From: a virus
DNA: 64,000 bases
Reading direction: 5' to 3' (one strand)
IMG/VR virus record: IMGVR_UViG_3300039190_000120
Location: 32,324-96,323 of that record
The notes below the pieces were generated by a model, which worked only from the letters and a program-made list of their open reading frames with translations, searched no databases and was not told where the DNA came from. The position numbers and the translations under genes are program-made. Of this stretch, positions 1-15,115 are shown piece by piece (the first letter of the stretch is position 1; every line of letters starts with the position of its first letter).

Positions 1-967
1 TAACGTCCATGTAGAACTCGTACCCGATGATCTCAGATACCTGATTGGCGACGTTGAGCTTCGTCTCAAACTCGGATGCTAAGACCTCAGCACCCATGTT
101 GCCATAATTCAGCGAGAAGGGAGATACCTTGGAGAGGTCGAGGTCCCCCTGCTTGAACGGCTTGTGGAACTTAGGGTCGTAGCTTGCCGCCTTACCTTTC
201 TTACCTTTCTGGAACTTCGAGCGGTCAACCACATGATCTAGAAGGTCGCCCTGCAATACGTCTCCTTTAGGGCCGAACATACGTAGAGAGTTGGAGATGC
301 GGCCCCATCTAGCAGTCCAGTAGGCCATCAATCGAAGCCGCTCCGTCTGAGTAGGCTCCGACCGGTGGTTACGGTTGCCGAAGTTCATGTTACGCACGTT
401 CATCGAGTTACCGTGCACCTGCTGGCTCAGGTTGTAGATGATCGAGAAGGGGTTCTTGCCTGTGAAGAAGTTGCCCTCCAGATTGAAACGTGCCTGTTGA
501 TCCGCCCTTGCCGCCAGTACAGACGGGTTGAGGTTGACCTGCTGAATGTTCCACCAGTATAGAATGTCGGAGCAGGCAAGAGAGACCGTTTGTTCACCGG
601 CGCTATAGTTCTCGTCTACCGATGTGACGATACCCCAGAAGACCGGATAGAACATCGGGGTACCACCCACGGTGAACTGCCCCTTCATGTAGATCTGGAC
701 CTCCATCATCGTGGTAAGGGTCAGGTGCCCTCCCACGTAAATGTCGTCAAGATAGTGCTGCGGCACATGGAGGTCGAGAGATGCGGAGCCCGGAGCGCCA
801 GATACAGAGAGGTTGACGCTGACGCTGTTGATTAGGGGCTGCAAGGGGATCTTGCGGTAGGGATTATCCCCACTCGGCAGGCTCTGCTCTCCGTTGATAA
901 AGACCAGACAGTCGGGGGCCGAAGTGATCACGCTTCGGCGGTTAGCTTTGAAGGTACCCTGATACAT
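1..967 (-). CDS. Putative tail/baseplate hub-like protein (3' end outside window)
   Basis: The reading frame is open from an ATG at 967 to the left edge, at least 322 codons, so the C-terminus is missing. The N-terminus (MYQGTFKANRRSV) leads into a beta-rich stretch with short motifs such as FWGIVTSV and SLACSDILYWW. These resemble the first domain of baseplate hub or late-control-D-like tail proteins; this is judged by eye. It is the last visible gene of the virion block downstream of the tape measure, which fits a baseplate role. The ATAATCC element at 1007-1020 lies about 45 bases upstream of the start. The gene is certain; the specific role is inferred. Confidence 0.7.
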   Translation of the reverse strand, partial: MYQGTFKANRRSVITSAPDCLVFINGEQSLPSGDNPYRKIPLQPLINSVSVNLSVSGAPGSASLDLHVPQHYLDDIYVGGHLTLTTMMEVQIYMKGQFTVGGTPMFYPVFWGIVTSVDENYSAGEQTVSLACSDILYWWNIQQVNLNPSVLAARADQQARFNLEGNFFTGKNPFSIIYNLSQQVHGNSMNVRNMNFGNRNHRSEPTQTERLRLMAYWTARWGRISNSLRMFGPKGDVLQGDLLDHVVDRSKFQKGKKGKAASYDPKFHKPFKQGDLDLSKVSPFSLNYGNMGAEVLASEFETKLNVANQVSEIIGYEFYMDV

Positions 968-1006
968 TCGCACTCCAGTGGTCCAATGAACTCACTAGAG
1001 TGGTTT

Positions 1007-1020
1007 TATCGAAGGATTAT
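1007..1020 (-). promoter_or_regulatory. ATAATCC-TTCGATA element, candidate late promoter
   Basis: The minus strand reads ATAATCCTTCGATA just upstream of the tail gene starting at 967. Close copies occur at 15771-15784, 25129-25144 and 55212-55225. No TTGACA-type promoter is visible in the virion block, so this may be the late-gene signal. The function is inferred only from recurrence and position. Confidence 0.35.
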
Positions 1021-1352
1021 GAGAGGTCCAAGTGACCCATCTCTAGCATACGGTTCCACGACGTGAACCAGCTCTGGATATTCTCACGGCCACCACCGCT
1101 ATTCGCCGTGTGGATATTGATGCCCACCTCACGAAGGTCCCAGCCTTCTGAGATAGCCAGCTCGACGAACCACTTGGCTGCATCTTTACCCTCCGGGACG
1201 TCTTCCCCCAGATCGTGGTCAAAGGACACATAGGAGGGACAACCACGCTCTTCCACGGTCTGGACGAACTCGTCATAGCTGCGGACCACCACCCAATCCC
1301 GGTCCGTCTTCGGGTCCCGCTCGTCATCTAAGTACAGGGAATAGGTCATCAT
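1017..1352 (-). CDS. Cyclic-phosphate-processing receiver (cREC)-like protein
   Basis: The 111-residue product has the signature of the small receiver-like family tied to RNA-end (cyclic phosphate) processing: LYLDDERDP near the N-terminus (acidic pocket), RSYDEF, then FDHDLGED and a C-terminal HTANSGGGRENI. These correspond to the receiver-fold acidic residues plus family-specific His and Arg positions. Family knowledge predicts a soluble protein acting on 2',3'-cyclic-phosphate RNA ends; no activity is proven here. The start overlaps the stop of the upstream paralog gene (ATGA-type overlap), so it is translated with the MPLLH cluster. A Tpt1/KptA-like gene at 22.5-23.0 kb is a possible functional partner. 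Confidence 0.75.
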   Translation of the reverse strand: MMTYSLYLDDERDPKTDRDWVVVRSYDEFVQTVEERGCPSYVSFDHDLGEDVPEGKDAAKWFVELAISEGWDLREVGINIHTANSGGGRENIQSWFTSWNRMLEMGHLDLS

Positions 1353-1810
1353 ATTCTCAGAAAGTCACTGGTAAGTATTTCCGCAGCCTCGTCTCTCCGC
1401 GCTCTAAAACCCTCCATGCACCGCTCGTAGATCGTGGAGTGGTACCTCTTTGCTACGCGCTTCAAGAACTTCTTTGTAGCATAGAGGTCGTCTACCTCCA
1501 AGGGTCCAGACACGCGCCCTAGAATATCCCCGTAAGAGGCTCCACATTTTCTATTGTGGTATCGGAACTCTCTTCGTATCTTATAACCGCCACCAGAGTA
1601 GGGTGTAATACGTAGCTTGGCGTTAGCCCCCACAAGTAGTCCCTTAGCCTCAGAGCCTAGATAGCTTATGACTGCCGCCATCAAGTCCGTCTGGATAATC
1701 CAGTCATCATATCGGAAGTGTCCTCGTTCCTCGTTCGGCTTTGAAGAGGGCTTCGCACACACTATGAGATCACCCGGATGGTATTTAGAGGGTCGGTGTA
1801 GTAGGGGCAT
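1349..1810 (-). CDS. MPLLH-family paralog 5
   Basis: A 153-residue protein of unknown function, last of five tandem paralogs. It has the family N-terminus MPLLHRPSKYHPGDLIVCAK and the conserved C-terminal segment around KKFLKRVAKRYHSTIYERC. The middle is divergent and beta-rich. The ATG at 1808-1810 shares a base with the upstream stop (TAATG), so translational coupling is likely. The start is set by alignment with the other four members; an in-frame ATG 18 bases upstream adds six unconserved residues. Confidence 0.8.
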   Translation of the reverse strand: MPLLHRPSKYHPGDLIVCAKPSSKPNEERGHFRYDDWIIQTDLMAAVISYLGSEAKGLLVGANAKLRITPYSGGGYKIRREFRYHNRKCGASYGDILGRVSGPLEVDDLYATKKFLKRVAKRYHSTIYERCMEGFRARRDEAAEILTSDFLRI

Positions 1811-2253
1811 TAGCGTACGTGGCTCCAAGTATATTGGCTTTTCTTGAACATGCTAAAGCACTGCTCGTAAATGGCGGTATGGTACTTCTTGACCACGCGC
1901 TTTAAGAACTTTAGGGCAACATACGGGTCCTCCCAATCCAAGTGACCCCGGACTACACCTAGCGGGTGCCCATTAATAAGGTAGGCCGTCTCCTCTAGTG
2001 AATGGTAAGTATTAACCAACCGGAAGCCTCCACCCATATAAGGGGTGATAGTGATCCCAGCATGGCCTTTAGAAACCAACCCATACTTCCCCTGCTTCCG
2101 ATGGACCTTGGACAGGGATATTTTCGTCTGAATATCCCACTCCTCGTAGATAATATCACGCACAGAACCATCTCCGGGACGGGAGCAGGGGTCGGAGCAA
2201 ACAAGTAGATCCCCGGCTCGAAGAGTTCTATCTGGCATATGGAGTAGTGGCAT
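1810..2253 (-). CDS. MPLLH-family paralog 4
   Basis: A 147-residue paralog of its neighbours, starting MPLLHMPDRTLRAGDLLVC and carrying VALKFLKRVVKKYHTAIYEQC near the end. The start overlaps the previous stop as TAATG. The central region differs strongly from the sister genes while both ends are conserved, which suggests a common fold with a variable face. No catalytic motif was recognised. Confidence 0.8.
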   Translation of the reverse strand: MPLLHMPDRTLRAGDLLVCSDPCSRPGDGSVRDIIYEEWDIQTKISLSKVHRKQGKYGLVSKGHAGITITPYMGGGFRLVNTYHSLEETAYLINGHPLGVVRGHLDWEDPYVALKFLKRVVKKYHTAIYEQCFSMFKKSQYTWSHVR

Positions 2254-2666
2254 TACAGGTCCTTTCGCACACGGAGCCATTCGTCCACTGCCAGCTCATG
2301 GAGGTAGCTGGAGTATCGTTTTGCAACCCGCTTCAGGTACTTGTATACAACGTAGGAGTCCCGGCAGTCAAGAGAACCGGACACACGGCCTAGCAGTAAG
2401 TCAGAGGTCCTGATCACCTGACTTTGCACGTCCCATCGACCCCTCTCTGTCAGCCGGTATCCACCCTTACCATAAGGGATCACGGTGATAGAGCCTAGAA
2501 GGTCCATTTGAAAATGATTATCAACCCCCGCATGACGGTAGGTACCTAGAGCCAGACGAACTTCCGGCTCAGCTTGGTGTGCGAATAGATACCGATCAGC
2601 TTCGGCTTCAGCGAACAGCACGAGATCTCCCGGCTGGTACCTCTTAGTCTTGTGGAGTAGTGGCAT
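2253..2666 (-). CDS. MPLLH-family paralog 3
   Basis: A 137-residue paralog beginning MPLLHKTKRYQPGDLVLFAE and ending with the conserved VVYKYLKRVAKRYSSYLHEL motif. The longer frame upstream of this ATG is only the out-of-frame overlap with paralog 2, so the family start is used. Its function is unknown. The stop overlaps the next start as TAATG. Confidence 0.8.
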   Translation of the reverse strand: MPLLHKTKRYQPGDLVLFAEAEADRYLFAHQAEPEVRLALGTYRHAGVDNHFQMDLLGSITVIPYGKGGYRLTERGRWDVQSQVIRTSDLLLGRVSGSLDCRDSYVVYKYLKRVAKRYSSYLHELAVDEWLRVRKDL

Positions 2667-2667
2667 G

Positions 2668-3084
2668 TTATCCCTCGATCTGCGTTGCAGCATACCACAC
2701 TTGGAAACAGGAGTCGTAGATAGCTGCGTGGTATCTCTTAGCCACCCTACGGAGGTACTTTTCCATCGCATACGTGTCGGAGCAGTCAATCGTTCCTGAC
2801 ACACGGCCTAACAAGTCGGAGAACTCACCCCAGATTAGTGCCCTACCACCGCATGGATGCCGGTTAAGGAAACGGTAGCCTCCTGAGAGATAGGGAGTGA
2901 TTGCGATACACGCCTGCCGGTAATGGAAAATACCCCCCATAGCAATCTCTTTGTGACGAGCCAAAACTAGAGTGGTCTCCGGCTCAGGCTCCATACCTAC
3001 CTCAACATATACATGGGCCTGAGGCTCTGCTAAGACTATGAGATCACCCTTGTGGAGCTTCTCCGCTTTGTGAAGCAATGGCAT
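2668..3084 (-). CDS. MPLLH-family paralog 2
   Basis: A 138-residue paralog with N-terminus MPLLHKAEKLHKGDLIVLAE and C-terminal AMEKYLRRVAKRYHAAIYDSC. The stop lies one base before the next start (TAACATG) and its own start overlaps the previous stop as TAATG. The function is unknown. The conserved RVAKRYH block is basic and could bind nucleic acid or protein; this is speculation. Confidence 0.8.
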   Translation of the reverse strand: MPLLHKAEKLHKGDLIVLAEPQAHVYVEVGMEPEPETTLVLARHKEIAMGGIFHYRQACIAITPYLSGGYRFLNRHPCGGRALIWGEFSDLLGRVSGTIDCSDTYAMEKYLRRVAKRYHAAIYDSCFQVWYAATQIEG

Positions 3085-3590
3085 TAGTAGCCCGGCTCTT
3101 CAAAAGGGGTGTAGTGGTAGACGTAATGAAGCTCTTCTTTGAAGAAGTCACGGTACCGCTTCGCCACGTTGCGGAGATAGGCACGACAAGCATACGGATC
3201 TTGTGTGTCCAGCTTGCCCGCTACCGCTCCCATGACGGCATCAGATACTACCACGTCACCGAACATTTGTCGAGCCCTTCCCGAATAGTGATCAAAATAC
3301 CGGCACACATAAGAGGAGGGGGTGATCTCCACATCTGCGATAATATTGACCGTGATAAGTTCCTGCTCCATCCACTGAATATCACGCATACCCTCTGGAG
3401 GTTGTAGCACGCGGGTAGACTGGTATTCAGCGACGGTGAGGGTGCCTACAGGAGTGACCTCGCTCCGTAAAAGAGAGGCCCACTCTCCAAAGACATTGGG
3501 CTCGTATGCTTCATCTTCCTCGAAGTCGGTGTAGTAGTAGACAATGAGGTCGCCCTCATAGTACCGATCACTCGGGTGAATCAAGGGCAT
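3084..3590 (-). CDS. MPLLH-family paralog 1 (MPLIH variant)
   Basis: The longest member (168 residues) and first of the five, starting MPLIHPSDRYYEGDLIVYYY. The C-terminal block is ACRAYLRNVAKRYRDFF. Its start overlaps the stop of the distal-tail gene 3590-4777 as TAATG, so the cluster is probably cotranscribed with virion genes. This places the family among late proteins. The function is unknown. Confidence 0.8.
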   Translation of the reverse strand: MPLIHPSDRYYEGDLIVYYYTDFEEDEAYEPNVFGEWASLLRSEVTPVGTLTVAEYQSTRVLQPPEGMRDIQWMEQELITVNIIADVEITPSSYVCRYFDHYSGRARQMFGDVVVSDAVMGAVAGKLDTQDPYACRAYLRNVAKRYRDFFKEELHYVYHYTPFEEPGY

Positions 3591-4777
3591 TAAGACCTCT
3601 CAAGTCGCTGCTCATATCGAACAGTGAAGGACCAGTTATAGTCAAAGGTGAAGGGACTACTCTCAGAATGCGTGAGGGAGAAGGAATCGAAGGAGCCCGT
3701 GTAGATCGTGCCATCATAGAAGATGGACACAGCGCCCACAAGGGAGATCCGGTGATCCGTGTTGTAGATGTAGCCGTTACTCCGGTAGACCTGATACAGA
3801 GAGAGGAACTGCTGGTAAGCATAGGAGCCTTTCCTAGAGCCCACAGCAAGGCCGCCAGCCGGATTCCCCAAGCTATCCTTTCTGTTGATATAGAAGACGC
3901 CCACCTTACCACTAGCGTTGATCTTAGGCTGTTGCTCGCCCCAGAACTCAACGGTGAAGCCATCCCTCGTGTGGTTGGCATCGCTCACGATAAACTCGTA
4001 GCTCTTCGAGAACGTCTCCGGGTTCACGTACATGAAGAGCGGGGGGAGCTGTGACATATAGAGCGCCTGCTCACGCAAGAAGTCCAAATCATCCTGTACC
4101 CGTGAGCGTCGAGCCCTCTGAATGTCATTATTCTCGCTGAAAGGGTCTTCCAGCGCTCTTCGAGCTTTGCCCGTAATCGGGGTATTCATCTCGGAGAGAC
4201 GAGAGCCTGCTTCTCTAGAAGAGTTCTGGAACTGCTCATAGCGGTTACGCATCTCCGTCAGGTAGTAATTACGGGCATCCTCTTGGCGCTGGTGCTTAAT
4301 CAAAGCCTCTCCACCATCCAAGAACCGGGGGTCGTCTGCATCCAGACCGTCGTCATTGTAAGCCGGGACCTCTACCTCCATCGTCGTAGAGGGAGACGTG
4401 GCAACTACTTGATCTACAGTAGTCGTAGAAGCCCCCTTGGCATCCTCGGTGGAGAACCTCTCAGACATACCAGAGAGACGGACATTGGCGGTCTGAGGAG
4501 AGGGTATCCTCTTGGTGGTCGTGTTGCCGGTGGGGAAGTTTCGGGGAGGCACGATAGAGATCATCATAGGAATCAGAGGACGCTTAGCGTGCCCCACTGA
4601 CTGTACCGGACTAGGGAAGGCGTTGAAGTCGTAACCATGCCCCGTCACCAGACCGGAGTAGTATTCCACGACGGAATTCGCCTTCTCGAAGCCTCGCTGA
4701 AGCTGTGGCTCTTGGTCCGGGTTGTACGTGTTACCGGTAAGGGCCTCTAGGATTTCTTCGGTGGTAGCCACAATCAA
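3590..4777 (-). CDS. Distal tail/baseplate-associated protein, long paralog
   Basis: A 395-residue protein. The N-terminal two-thirds is polar with low-complexity Ser/Thr stretches. Its last ~150 residues (from PPLFMYVNPETFSKSY through FYDGTIYTGSFDSFSLTHSE) are related to the whole of the neighbouring 183-residue protein, giving an ancient duplication with an N-terminal extension in this copy. Position downstream of the tape measure suggests a distal-tail or baseplate component. Family membership is by eye only. Confidence 0.7.
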   Translation of the reverse strand: MIVATTEEILEALTGNTYNPDQEPQLQRGFEKANSVVEYYSGLVTGHGYDFNAFPSPVQSVGHAKRPLIPMMISIVPPRNFPTGNTTTKRIPSPQTANVRLSGMSERFSTEDAKGASTTTVDQVVATSPSTTMEVEVPAYNDDGLDADDPRFLDGGEALIKHQRQEDARNYYLTEMRNRYEQFQNSSREAGSRLSEMNTPITGKARRALEDPFSENNDIQRARRSRVQDDLDFLREQALYMSQLPPLFMYVNPETFSKSYEFIVSDANHTRDGFTVEFWGEQQPKINASGKVGVFYINRKDSLGNPAGGLAVGSRKGSYAYQQFLSLYQVYRSNGYIYNTDHRISLVGAVSIFYDGTIYTGSFDSFSLTHSESSPFTFDYNWSFTVRYEQRLERS

Positions 4778-4785
4778 GGCTCCTA

Positions 4786-5337
4786 TTAAGTGATCAGGTT
4801 GACAACCTCTTCCTCTGCCCGGAAAGCGAAGTCCCCGGAGAGCATGAAGGGTTGGGAGGACGACTCACTGACATTGAAGCTGCGGAATGAGCCGTCGTAA
4901 ATGCCGCCCTCGAAGATCATTCGGATGCGGCCACGGTACTGCACATTGCCTTGGGTGTCGTAAATGAGACCGTTGTTATGGAAGAGATCGAGGAGGTGGT
5001 GGAACTTCTCGTAGGCGATCGTCTCTCGGCGGTTCTGTACCGCGAGCCCCGTGTCCACGTTGATGAAGGCACCGGACACGATTTCGGCACTTACGTCCAC
5101 GAGCTGATCCCCGAAGTGTTGTTCATGCCAACCGCCCCTCGTCTGGATACGCTCAACCACCTTTGAGTAGTTGAGGCTCAGGGAGGTGGGGTTGATATGA
5201 AGGTACAGCGCCTCTGGAAGCAGAAGGCTCTCGTAGTCAATAGAGAGCACCTGAAACAGGAGGGGGATCTTATCTCCTCCGTCAGTGGGGCCTCCGAAAG
5301 CACTCGGGATCGAGGCGTTAGAATATCCTGTTGGCAT
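4786..5337 (-). CDS. Distal tail/baseplate-associated protein, short paralog
   Basis: A 183-residue protein with the core LYLHINPTSLSLNYSKVVER, TRGGWHEQHFGD and FEGGIYDGSFRSFNVSESS. It aligns with the C-terminal half of the product of 3590-4777. It lies immediately downstream of the tape measure, where proteins joining the tube tip to the baseplate are often encoded. The TAAGTCATGCC context and an AGGAGGTAAG ribosome site support this start. Confidence 0.72.
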   Translation of the reverse strand: MPTGYSNASIPSAFGGPTDGGDKIPLLFQVLSIDYESLLLPEALYLHINPTSLSLNYSKVVERIQTRGGWHEQHFGDQLVDVSAEIVSGAFINVDTGLAVQNRRETIAYEKFHHLLDLFHNNGLIYDTQGNVQYRGRIRMIFEGGIYDGSFRSFNVSESSSQPFMLSGDFAFRAEEEVVNLIT

Positions 5338-5348
5338 GACTTACCTCC

Positions 5349-8300
5349 TTATGACATACTGCGGGCTCGTTCCCATTCCTCAAGTACCTTGAGGATGGTC
5401 CGGCGGATCTCACTCTGGTTCCCGCCGTTGATGAAGAAGTTGGCGTGCATCGTGTTTCCACCACCCCCACCACCGCCACTCGAACCACCGGATGCTCCAG
5501 CCTTTTTGAGAAGCTCGGGTACGAACTGACCCTTAGAACCGGCCACCGTATTAGCGAGGGATTCTTGATCAACCACAATGTCGCCCGGCTGTAGGCTCAG
5601 GAAGGGGATACCCTTCGTCATAATACGAGCATCACCGGCTTCTTTGGGCTTAGCAGGCCTGATCCCGTAAGAGTCCACAATATCCTTCGCAAGAGGATTG
5701 TTCTCGAACATCTTGATGGCATCTTTATTGCCTGCCTGATATTCGTTAACCAAGTGCGCTGCCTCATCCCTAGAGACCTCGAAATCTGCTGCCAAGTCTG
5801 ATACAGCTTGTTTGTAGGTCTGGGCTTTAATCTGCCGGTCAACCAGCTTCTTAATCGCCTTGTCAGAAAGCATGATACCTTTTTCTTCCAGCACTGCCTT
5901 CGTTTCCTTTTGTATCGTCTCAGAGTCCTCTGCAAAAACATTGCCCTCGTCCAGCTTCTTTTTCATCACCTCGTCCAGCTCGTCACGAGCCTGAGACAGC
6001 ATGATGGCCTCGTCTAGAAGTTTTTTGAGGTCCTCCCCCTCGTAGGTCTTACCGTCTCTGATAACCTTCGTTAGCTTTCCATAGTTTTTATCTTTTCGTC
6101 CACGGAAGTTGTCTACCCATTCATCCCCATACTTGAACCTCTTAGTTCCGTCAGCGAGGCTTTGGTCAAGCAATGCCTTCCCGGATGCAGCGTGTTTGTC
6201 ATACTCTTCCCGTGATTTGATTCCAGTACGGGCAGAGCGTCCAGCATCCTCAATCCCCATCCCGGAATCTAGCAGGCGGCGCTCTGCTGCGTTCTGACGG
6301 AGAGAGCCCTCCAGCTCTGCTATCCGCTCACGAGCAGCGGTGGCACTATCTTCATCGCCATCCTCCTGAGCCAGTTTTAGAGTCTCTCTCGCAGAACGGA
6401 GGCCTCGTCGAGTTTCGGCATCCTCCTTCATCAGGTTGACCCGGCGCTCCTTCTCGGGACCTTGCCCCCCAAAGAAGTCGACGATAGCGCTGTAAATGTC
6501 CAACACTACCTCGTAGATCCCGGATACTAGATCCATCATCTTGTACTTGAGGGTGTCCAGCATGGACCTCTGCATATCAGCCTGCTTTTCAGCCAGAGTC
6601 TTCTGGTTCTTCTGCTCTTCCAGCATCTCCTCCTGTTTATCCTTCGTCATGTACTCCATCAAGTCGGACCAGTTCATGTTCTGTAGTTCAGCGGCCTCTA
6701 CAGAATAGCCCATCTTCTCAGCCATCTCTTGGAAGGACTCAGGATCTTCTGCGGCGGCCTGACGGAGAAGCTCAAGATCACCGGACATAGAGGACTTGAG
6801 GCTCTTGAGCATACGAAGCTGGTCCTCACTGTATCCCTGTGACTCGGCAAGAACAGAGTTGATGTTCTCCAGCGGCATCCCCAGCTTCCCTGTGAGGTCT
6901 CCAATCTGGAGTGCAATCTGATCTCCCAGAGCGAAGTCTCCCATGATACCCTGAAGCTCCAGCTCATTGTTCTTGTCGGCCTCTAAGATACGGCGGTACT
7001 TGTCAAACTTCTCGCCGGTCTTGTTGTCGAGGCGGTTGAGTGTGGCGTCAAGCATGTTCTTTTGCTTGGCCGTCATCTTTTCCATCGCACCCTCAAAGCC
7101 GAACTTATCAAAGAGCTTCTCAGCACCTCCACCCATCTTCTCAAAGGCTTTCTGAATCACCTGAGGATCGAGGGACTTCTCCACCGACTTCTGGGCCTTT
7201 TCAGCCATCTTAGCTACTTTGCTAATGCCGTTAACCGCGATCATCGAGACACGCTCGACGGCAGACATATTTTTGATTGCTGTGGATAGCGTCTGGACAA
7301 AATCTTCGGCACTCTTGGCGTCCATGATATTGGTGAGCTTGCTGAAGAGGGCCGCCGTCTCTTGGATCTTGTAGTTGTAGAGGCCCATCTCACCTACCAC
7401 ATTCTGGACGGTGGAGTAGAACTTCTTGGTACTCACACCGGCCTCTTGTGCAAATGAGATCACCTGAGTCATGGTATCCATCGCCTCGTCAAACGACTGC
7501 TGTGTTACATCACCCAAGGTACCAATCAGCTCGGCAGCCTCGGTGGCATCCACACCAAGTGCTAGCGCTCGGGTCTGAACCTCCATCAGCATTTCCTTTG
7601 AGCTGACACCTTCATCACGAATATCCCCCATAAGCATACCAGCTTCATGGAGGCCAGTCGTAATACCCGCCATCTCTTCGGGATCTAGACCCATCATCCG
7701 AAGGTCCATATCCGTCATGACGGTATTACGGAACTCACGCATAGCCTCTTCTGAGTCTGCCAGCTTGTCCTCAAAGTTCGTGTAGTTGGTAGAGGCCATC
7801 TCCACGAGCGAGACGTTCTTGAGCATGGACTTGTTGATGTCCTTGACCTTGGCGTCTAGATCTAGGAACAGCTTGACAATGGTGCCAATAGCTCCTGCAG
7901 CGATAGCCAGAGGACCGGCGATCTTGGCAAACTTACCTAGCGCTCCTGCCAGCTTACCTGCGGTGCCCCCAGCACCCCCCTTCATCTGGGCATCAAAGGC
8001 TCGCTTCTGGCCCTGCTCCCCGATGTTTTTAGCCCCGGACCCCAAGGTCTGTGCAAACCCCTTCACATCGCCCGACCGGAGAGCTTGGATAGCGTTCATA
8101 CCGCCGCCCAGAGCATCCCCGCTCAGGTCTGCTAGGGACTTTTTCTCGGTATTGACGAGCTTATCAAACTCCTTCTGGTGCTTCTCAAAGACCTTTCCCG
8201 TCTGGGCCATCTCGAAGGCATAGGCCTTCTTGATCTCTGCGAACCTCTCTTTGGCGGCCTTCTTGGAGTCCTCGTCACCGGCCTGCATCACCTTGGCAAG

Positions 8301-8609
8301 ACCGTCCATCTCCCCTTTCATATCCCGTAGACGCTTCTCTTGGCGGCGCATCTTGCCGGAGCTGAACATACCTCCCCATTCTTTGGATGCACTGGAGATA
8401 GACCCCTCTAGCTCCGTGATGGAGCTGCGCATCCCCATAAACTGATTTTCCAGAGAGGCATTAGACTTCTTACCCTCCGAAGAGAATTCTTGGAAAGTAG
8501 AGAGCGCCCCTTTCAGTGACCTCTCGACATTACCAAACTGCTTCTCGACGGAGGCAGCACCCTGCTGCTCCACCTCGAAAATCAACTTTGTCAGTTCTTG
8601 ATCAGCCAT
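5349..8609 (-). CDS. Tail tape-measure protein
   Basis: At 1086 residues this is the longest gene in the window. It is rich in Ala, Lys, Glu and Met with long predicted helices. A hydrophobic Ala/Gly/Leu/Ile stretch lies at roughly residues 215-252 (GKFAKIAGPLAIAAGAIGT). The C-terminus has a Gly/Ser-rich linker followed by a helical end. Large size, coiled-coil-like composition, internal hydrophobic segment and position between chaperone-like and distal-tail genes identify a tape measure, which sets tail length and helps DNA entry. Using the usual rule of about 0.15 nm per residue, the tail would be around 160 nm; that is inference. Confidence 0.88.
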   Translation of the reverse strand: MADQELTKLIFEVEQQGAASVEKQFGNVERSLKGALSTFQEFSSEGKKSNASLENQFMGMRSSITELEGSISSASKEWGGMFSSGKMRRQEKRLRDMKGEMDGLAKVMQAGDEDSKKAAKERFAEIKKAYAFEMAQTGKVFEKHQKEFDKLVNTEKKSLADLSGDALGGGMNAIQALRSGDVKGFAQTLGSGAKNIGEQGQKRAFDAQMKGGAGGTAGKLAGALGKFAKIAGPLAIAAGAIGTIVKLFLDLDAKVKDINKSMLKNVSLVEMASTNYTNFEDKLADSEEAMREFRNTVMTDMDLRMMGLDPEEMAGITTGLHEAGMLMGDIRDEGVSSKEMLMEVQTRALALGVDATEAAELIGTLGDVTQQSFDEAMDTMTQVISFAQEAGVSTKKFYSTVQNVVGEMGLYNYKIQETAALFSKLTNIMDAKSAEDFVQTLSTAIKNMSAVERVSMIAVNGISKVAKMAEKAQKSVEKSLDPQVIQKAFEKMGGGAEKLFDKFGFEGAMEKMTAKQKNMLDATLNRLDNKTGEKFDKYRRILEADKNNELELQGIMGDFALGDQIALQIGDLTGKLGMPLENINSVLAESQGYSEDQLRMLKSLKSSMSGDLELLRQAAAEDPESFQEMAEKMGYSVEAAELQNMNWSDLMEYMTKDKQEEMLEEQKNQKTLAEKQADMQRSMLDTLKYKMMDLVSGIYEVVLDIYSAIVDFFGGQGPEKERRVNLMKEDAETRRGLRSARETLKLAQEDGDEDSATAARERIAELEGSLRQNAAERRLLDSGMGIEDAGRSARTGIKSREEYDKHAASGKALLDQSLADGTKRFKYGDEWVDNFRGRKDKNYGKLTKVIRDGKTYEGEDLKKLLDEAIMLSQARDELDEVMKKKLDEGNVFAEDSETIQKETKAVLEEKGIMLSDKAIKKLVDRQIKAQTYKQAVSDLAADFEVSRDEAAHLVNEYQAGNKDAIKMFENNPLAKDIVDSYGIRPAKPKEAGDARIMTKGIPFLSLQPGDIVVDQESLANTVAGSKGQFVPELLKKAGASGGSSGGGGGGGNTMHANFFINGGNQSEIRRTILKVLEEWERARSMS

Positions 8610-14446: not shown

Positions 14447-15115
14447 TTAAGCGAGGCCAGTCGGTGCGCCCTGTCCGTTGGAATAACGGATCGAGCTGCT
14501 GGAATCCTCAAACGGGTTGTTACCCGTGCTGATGATCTCGCCGTAGGAGCTGGTACCGTCAATAATGTCAGTGACCTTGATACCTACGTTCTCTTGGACC
14601 AGTGCAGAGTCCGAAGAGTAGTCAGCACCCCAGCTTTCCATCCAGCACGCCTCGTAGAAGGTGAGGATGGCTTCATTCACGCCGTCAGACGACGGAGTAA
14701 CGAGCTTGGGGCTTACCGATTCGTTGGTAGCAATCCGGCTGAATACCAGCTCTTGCTTAATGTCGAAGGGCCAGCGGTGGTGCTTGAGCGAGCGCACAAG
14801 ACCGTCCGTACCGGCTTTGTATCCGAATACCTGCCAGATGTTGCTCAGGTACAGGAGGGTACGAGTGACGGAGATCGACATTGAAGGCGTGGTGCCGGGC
14901 ACCAGCTCTGCAATTTGATCACCATAGCCCATACCACGAACCTCTTCGATGGTACGGCTCTCACTCAGGCCAAAGGAACTGAGCACGCCAACCTGACTGA
15001 AAGCAGACTTGCCGGTCGGAACAGAAAAGACCTTGTTCTTCTGGCTTACCGCAATCCGGGTGTTGGGCGTGGTTCCACGGCGGTAGATGTAACTATCATT
15101 GTCTCGCATGGACAA
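14447..15115 (-). CDS. Tail tube-like protein
   Basis: A 222-residue protein with a beta-rich core and the segment EEVRGMGYGDQIAELVPGTT, which resembles tail-tube/inner-tube proteins. Its own terminator downstream and a good ribosome site upstream are consistent with high expression, as is its simple composition without long charged tails. Position upstream of the chaperones and tape measure fits. The identification rests on motif resemblance and order. Confidence 0.62.
   Translation of the reverse strand: MSMRDNDSYIYRRGTTPNTRIAVSQKNKVFSVPTGKSAFSQVGVLSSFGLSESRTIEEVRGMGYGDQIAELVPGTTPSMSISVTRTLLYLSNIWQVFGYKAGTDGLVRSLKHHRWPFDIKQELVFSRIATNESVSPKLVTPSSDGVNEAILTFYEACWMESWGADYSSDSALVQENVGIKVTDIIDGTSSYGEIISTGNNPFEDSSSSIRYSNGQGAPTGLA

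What the first reader, a model, noticed from the sequence alone, without database searches (positions are those of the whole stretch)
1349..3590. Five tandem MPLLH paralogs with conserved ends and divergent middles
All five start MPL(L/I)H and carry a basic RVAKRYH-type C-terminal block, and their genes overlap as TAATG. As in the MIRN array, stop-start DNA coincides with a conserved N-terminus. They sit with virion genes, so could be variable late proteins.
Basis: partly seen in the sequence, partly recalled or inferred. Interest (0 to 1): 0.7.

Follow-up and report, generated by a model that had tools for sequence, protein, structure and literature searches.

The report
Variable paralog array in phage tail operon
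One clade of very large bacterial viruses carries, in the middle of its tail-building genes, a tandem set of small fast-evolving related proteins whose number (1, 4 or 5 clear copies) and sequence differ from virus to virus; they probably serve encounters with hosts or rival viruses rather than tail construction, but that is not shown.

Summary
In detail: five homologous genes on the minus strand at 1349-3590, BLAST E down to 1e-28 between copies, with a conserved N-terminus (MPL[LI]H...GDL), a central TPYxGG island, a conserved C-terminal block and divergent stretches between. They match nothing in Pfam, PHROGs, PADLOC or PDB sequences. Two AlphaFold models (pLDDT 88 and 81) give one fold, an SH3-like small beta-barrel plus two C-terminal helices, with the conserved ends in its core elements. 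Codons at conserved residues are nearly randomised (58-60% differ, 61-65% expected), so the protein is conserved, not a stop-start DNA element. The array is an insertion, with a cREC gene, between two tail genes that are adjacent (gap 46 nt or less) in 30 of 32 array-less relatives. Array carriers group together and the sister phage has the empty site. Clear copy numbers are 1, 4 and 5, and copies diverge faster (about 30% identity) than neighbouring proteins (54-70%). Best reading: a dispensable accessory cassette of diversified binding proteins, probably made late and directed at hosts or rivals (0.45). A variable virion component remains a serious rival (0.30). No functional test was possible.

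The parts
3084..3590 (-). g1, first array copy (MPLIH, 168 aa), most divergent, first-position subfamily
   Evidence: AlphaFold model pLDDT 81
2668..3084 (-). g2, array copy (MPLLH, 138 aa)
   Evidence: AlphaFold model pLDDT 88
2253..2666 (-). g3, array copy (MPLLH, 137 aa); joined to g2 by TAACATG, not TAATG
1810..2253 (-). g4, array copy (MPLLH, 147 aa)
1349..1810 (-). g5, array copy (MPLLH, 153 aa)
1017..1352 (-). cREC (cyclic-phosphate processing receiver domain), inserted together with the array; same neighbour in L014-L017 and L061
   Evidence: Pfam PF20274, 75.8 bits against cut-off 27
3590..4777 (-). T395, conserved tail-operon protein, upstream edge of the insertion slot
4786..5337 (-). 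T183, conserved tail-operon protein, paralog of the C-terminal part of T395
1..973 (-). HUB, N-terminal part of a large tail protein (about 1245 aa in L057), downstream edge of the slot
5349..8609 (-). Tape-measure-like protein of the same operon
   Evidence: weak TMP_N match below cut-off; synteny

Best explanation
The five genes are a lineage-specific tandem expansion of one small protein family, carried with a cREC gene as an accessory insertion in the tail operon of one clade of huge phages. SHOWN: homology, insertion at a site that is empty in the sister phage, copy-number variation, fast divergence, protein-level conservation of the ends. PREDICTED: one fold, an SH3-like small beta-barrel followed by two C-terminal helices, in which the conserved MPLLH...GDL, TPYxGG and GRVxG...YLKRVAKRYH segments fall in the core elements and much of the divergent sequence in loops and hairpin ends. 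INFERRED: the copies are co-transcribed and translationally coupled with tail genes, so made late; each copy uses its divergent surface to bind a different partner. The partner is most likely a host or competitor factor (counter-defence, host takeover or exclusion), because the family is dispensable across the wider phage group, turns over like an arms-race family and travels with a predicted conflict or RNA-repair enzyme. Whether the proteins are also packaged in the virion is open.
For: Homology z 11-44. T395 and HUB adjacent in 30 of 32 array-less loci; array carriers group together with the empty-site phage L066 as sister, support 82/94. Copy number 5 (window, L006), 4 (L014-L016), 1 (L017, L061). 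Neighbours 54-70% identical between window and L014, array about 30%. One copy outside the tail operon in the 437-kb record (E 1e-11 with an independent profile). cREC beside the array, proposed to process cyclic nucleotides in jumbo-phage conflicts and RNA repair (PMC7824862). Fold from two models.
Against: No target, no expression data and no function is shown for any copy. Position inside a tail operon equally suits a virion part. cREC may be a chance neighbour. Structural matches are at background strength (best Z 5.4) and point to a general architecture only. Fast divergence could be relaxed constraint; silent-to-replacement tests were impossible, as near-identical strains hold too few changes and other pairs are saturated.
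Confidence: 0.45

Rival explanations
1. They are non-essential, variable virion components (decoration or adaptor proteins of baseplate or tail tip), made with the tail and diversified for host attachment.
For: They lie between conserved tail genes, on the same strand, with overlapping stop-start codons, and no internal promoter or terminator exceeds chance.
Against: Absent from the sister phage L066 and all other relatives with the same tail module; one copy lies far from the tail operon in the L019 genome; copy number is as low as one.
Confidence: 0.3
2. They are chaperones or assembly helpers for the tail proteins encoded next to them, each copy suited to one partner.
For: Tight coupling to T395 and nearness to a very large tail protein.
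Against: The same tail proteins (T183 56%, HUB 48% identical in L066) are made without any copy, and copy number varies 1-5 while the neighbouring gene set stays the same.
Confidence: 0.1
3. They are packaged and ejected internal proteins like T4 IPI-IPIII, with MPLLH as the targeting peptide.
For: Shared short N-terminus with divergent bodies, small size, genome-to-genome variability; T4 IPs work that way (PMC9026906).
Against: The N-terminus is predicted as part of the fold (strand at residues 3-5, then GDL strand), both ends are conserved rather than only the N-terminus, and no shared x-x-E type cleavage motif follows it.
Confidence: 0.07
4. The shared start is a DNA element (recombination or regulatory site) at the gene junctions, and the peptide is a by-product.
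For: The stop-start coincides with the conserved N-terminus in four junctions.
Against: Codons for identical residues there differ in 60% of comparisons against 65% expected at random; the off-site copy and first copies behind other genes keep the peptide.
Confidence: 0.02

Closest known systems
SH3-like small beta-barrel domains (chromo-barrel, Tudor, Lsm, PWWP, KapB)
   Same: Predicted barrel topology; chromo-barrel and KapB also have helices after the barrel. Best Z 5.4 for both models.
   Different: No sequence similarity, Z at background level, long variable hairpin and loops, tandem paralogs in a phage tail operon. No ligand is implied.
T4 internal proteins IPI/IPII/IPIII
   Same: Several small, non-essential, variable phage proteins sharing a short N-terminus (PMC9026906).
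   Different: T4 IPs share only a removable 10-19-residue propeptide; here both ends and a central island are conserved and the N-terminus is predicted to be part of the fold.
Lineage-specific expansions in jumbo phages (about 35 zinc-ribbon copies in Bacillus phage G)
   Same: Many diverged paralogs of a small domain in one huge-phage lineage (PMC7824862).
   Different: Here the fold is a small barrel, copies stay in one tail-operon slot with one exception, and the empty site is seen in the sister phage.
Morons and accessory insertions in phage structural operons (from general knowledge)
   Same: Extra genes inserted between conserved structural genes, the site being empty in relatives.
   Different: The cargo is a self-expanding paralog family on the operon strand with overlapping starts and no promoter or terminator of its own above chance.

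Membership tests
SH3-like small-barrel families (chromo, Tudor, Lsm, PWWP, KapB) | Barrel topology with structural match clearly above background | tested here: inconclusive
   Confident models, but best Z 5.4 and no Foldseek E under 0.001
SH3-like small-barrel families (chromo, Tudor, Lsm, PWWP, KapB) | Sequence profile match to a named family | tested here: not met
   Nothing near a Pfam cut-off, no PDB sequence match
T4-type internal proteins (capsid-targeted) | Short N-terminal targeting peptide removed at a protease site | tested here: not met
   No shared cleavage motif after MPLLH; N-terminus belongs to the predicted fold. A cleavage rule of this phage's own protease is not known
T4-type internal proteins (capsid-targeted) | Presence inside the virion and ejection | not testable with these tools
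   Needs virion proteomics
Tail structural (virion) protein | Conserved across phages sharing the tail module | tested here: not met
   Absent from sister L066 and all other relatives searched
Tail structural (virion) protein | Presence in the virion | not testable with these tools
   Needs virion proteomics
Known anti-phage defence protein families (PADLOC) | Profile match | tested here: not met
   No match for the five or for cREC
cREC_REC, PF20274 (neighbour at 1017-1352) | Score above the Pfam cut-off | tested here: met
   75.8 bits against 27

The most novel reading that the evidence does not exclude
A previously undescribed huge-phage family in which one small-barrel scaffold with variable loops is duplicated and diversified in a fixed tail-operon slot, as a renewable set of host- or rival-directed binders (counter-defence or exclusion) made late with the tail.
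Probability: 0.35. Interest if true: 0.65.

Novelty: new variant of a known kind. Interest (0 to 1): 0.43.

Why it matters
If right, this slot marks where a huge-phage clade stores fast-evolving interaction proteins, in a place (the tail operon) where such genes are usually taken for structural parts. The family has no database entry, a confident predicted fold, a clean empty-site comparison and natural variants with 1, 4 and 5 copies, which makes copy-by-copy target specificity testable.

Tried and rejected
Known-family searches (PHROGs, Pfam, PADLOC, PDB sequences) gave nothing. tblastn of g2 in annotated phages: none. Queries with g2 or the five copies in viral contigs found only the near-identical L006; L016 copy 2 found only its own species. 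Relatives came from the tail-gene alignment. The wide family alignment had no stretch conserved enough for a scan. The genome-contig scan with HUB found no relative. DNA-element and T4-like propeptide readings were rejected. Polymorphism within species is too sparse for selection tests: window against L006 has 2 codon changes in the array, L014-L016 one, L017/L061 none. L061's place in the T183 tree is an artefact, as it lacks T183 and its T395 was used. Profiles seeded with L018/L019 members overstate how many members those phages have; an independent profile supports fewer. Foldseek against viral models gave no match below E 0.001.

Full report
THE OBSERVATION. Five ORFs of 168, 138, 137, 147 and 153 aa sit head to tail on the minus strand from 3590 down to 1349, in transcription order g1 to g5. 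All begin MPL[LI]H and share GDL at residues 13-15, a TPYxGG-like island and a C-terminal block (G.V.G.LD..D.YA...YLKRVAKRYH). BLAST and profile searches of the 96-kb record find exactly these five. Pairwise scores are 11 to 44 SD above shuffles. The upstream gene/g1, g1/g2, g3/g4 and g4/g5 join as TAATG; g2/g3 is TAACATG. Amino-acid identity is 58% in the N block, 51% in the C block, 49% at the island, and 18% and 7% in the two divergent stretches.

PROTEIN OR DNA CONSERVATION? At residues identical between copies the codons differ in 60% (N block) and 58% (C block) of comparisons, against 65% and 61% expected from the codon usage of eight neighbouring genes. Silent sites are thus close to randomised. 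The ends are held by selection on the protein; recent gene conversion or a stop-start DNA element is not supported.

RELATIVES AND THE EMPTY SITE. The array proteins themselves find only a near-identical contig (L006). The neighbouring tail gene T183, aligned with its homolog in the 485-kb phage LR745208.1, finds 33 loci; HUB and a close-clade T183 alignment add more. In 30 of 32 array-less loci that hold both genes, T395 and HUB are adjacent, with a gap of 46 nt or less (some loci are near-duplicates); the exceptions are L035 (125 nt) and L044 (986 nt). The nearest array-less relative, L066 (HUB 48%, T183 56%), has the empty site. Array carriers group together (82/94) with L066 as sister in the T183 tree, so one acquisition explains the pattern. 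Searches of 11 whole records of array-less phages, including LR745208.1 and Tunturiibacter phage Tunturi_5, find no member, nor does a profile search of the further loci.

COPY NUMBER AND TEMPO. Window and L006 have five copies, then cREC; L014-L016 four, then cREC; L017 and L061 one, then cREC. In the 437-kb record of L019 the slot is 8.4 kb. With a profile built only from window, L014 and L017 members, two slot copies (E 2e-14 and 2e-7) and one copy about 127 kb away (G007:C1:293286-293663, E 1e-11) are clear, and three or more further MPL-starting ORFs in the slot remain suggestive only. L018 has one clear copy (E 2e-13) and other suggestive ones. L006 (five-copy type) and L015 (four-copy type) bear the same metagenome number, 3300035034. 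The family tree puts g1 with L014 copies 1-2 and L017, and the other window copies with L014 copies 3-4, but several forks are weak. Between window and L014 the neighbours are 54-70% identical (T183 70, HUB 66, T395 56, cREC 54), the best full-length array pair about 30%.

FOLD. AlphaFold2 with 14 family sequences models g2 at pLDDT 87.6, pTM 0.84; g1, the most divergent copy, with 13 sequences at 81.3 and 0.77. Both show the same order: short N-terminal strand, GDL strand, two long strands, short strands, then two helices at the conserved C-terminal block. The low-confidence stretches of g1 (about residues 31-40 and 91-110) fall in divergent regions. Structural comparison returns small SH3-like barrels again and again: Lsm, Tudor, PWWP and KapB for g2; chromo-barrel, Tudor, BAH and KapB for g1; best Z 5.4 in both. 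This is background strength and names a general architecture, not a function.

CONTEXT AND MECHANISM. The module (tape-measure-like gene, T183, T395, HUB) is syntenic with that of other huge phages. No promoter- or terminator-like site exceeds chance around the array, so co-transcription with tail genes is likely but inferred. cREC travels with the array in the three best-resolved types; Iyer and colleagues posit that this domain processes cADPr or 2'-3' cyclic nucleotides in conflict and RNA repair of jumbo phages (PMC7824862). In L018 the slot also holds 12 copies of a repeat, mostly 61 nt apart, whose form resembles a type I-E CRISPR array (type recalled from general knowledge). Dispensability, copy-number turnover, fast divergence and company favour an accessory interaction cassette (0.45) over a variable virion part (0.30). 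Sequence alone cannot settle this.

VERDICT. Observation confirmed with small corrections; interpretation partly supported. This is a new protein family and a well-resolved insertion, of a general kind (lineage-specific expansion in a phage accessory slot) that is already known.

Noticed in passing
L018:17432-18092: Twelve copies of a repeat around CCCGTGTACGCGGGGATGT, mostly 61 nt apart, that look like a type I-E CRISPR array, inside the same tail-operon slot of a phage contig. No cas gene was recognised among the slot ORFs tested.
   Followed up: partly
L056:5275-5664 (G007:C1:293286-293663): A copy of the MPL family outside the tail operon, among small genes in the 437-kb relative.
   Followed up: partly
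window 29223, 41893, 44279, 49847, 50792, 53946 and others (start positions): Scattered genes starting MIRNYF-like (the 'MIRN array'), a second family with a shared N-terminus; relation to the MPL family not tested.
   Followed up: no
window 3590-4777 and 4786-5337: T395 (C-terminal part) and T183 are paralogs of each other, about 30% identical over 150 residues, in this phage and its relatives.
   Followed up: partly
L018 slot and L058:1553-2533: HUB lies on the opposite strand to T395 in this phage, so an inversion borders the slot.
   Followed up: no
L044:11857-12828: The only array-less relative with a large insert in the same slot; the ORF looks like an HNH endonuclease by eye.
   Followed up: no
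window 14447-15115: 44-48% identical homologs in LR745208.1 and in Tunturiibacter phage Tunturi_5, an isolate of a soil Tunturiibacter, there called virion structural protein: a lead to a cultured relative.
   Followed up: partly
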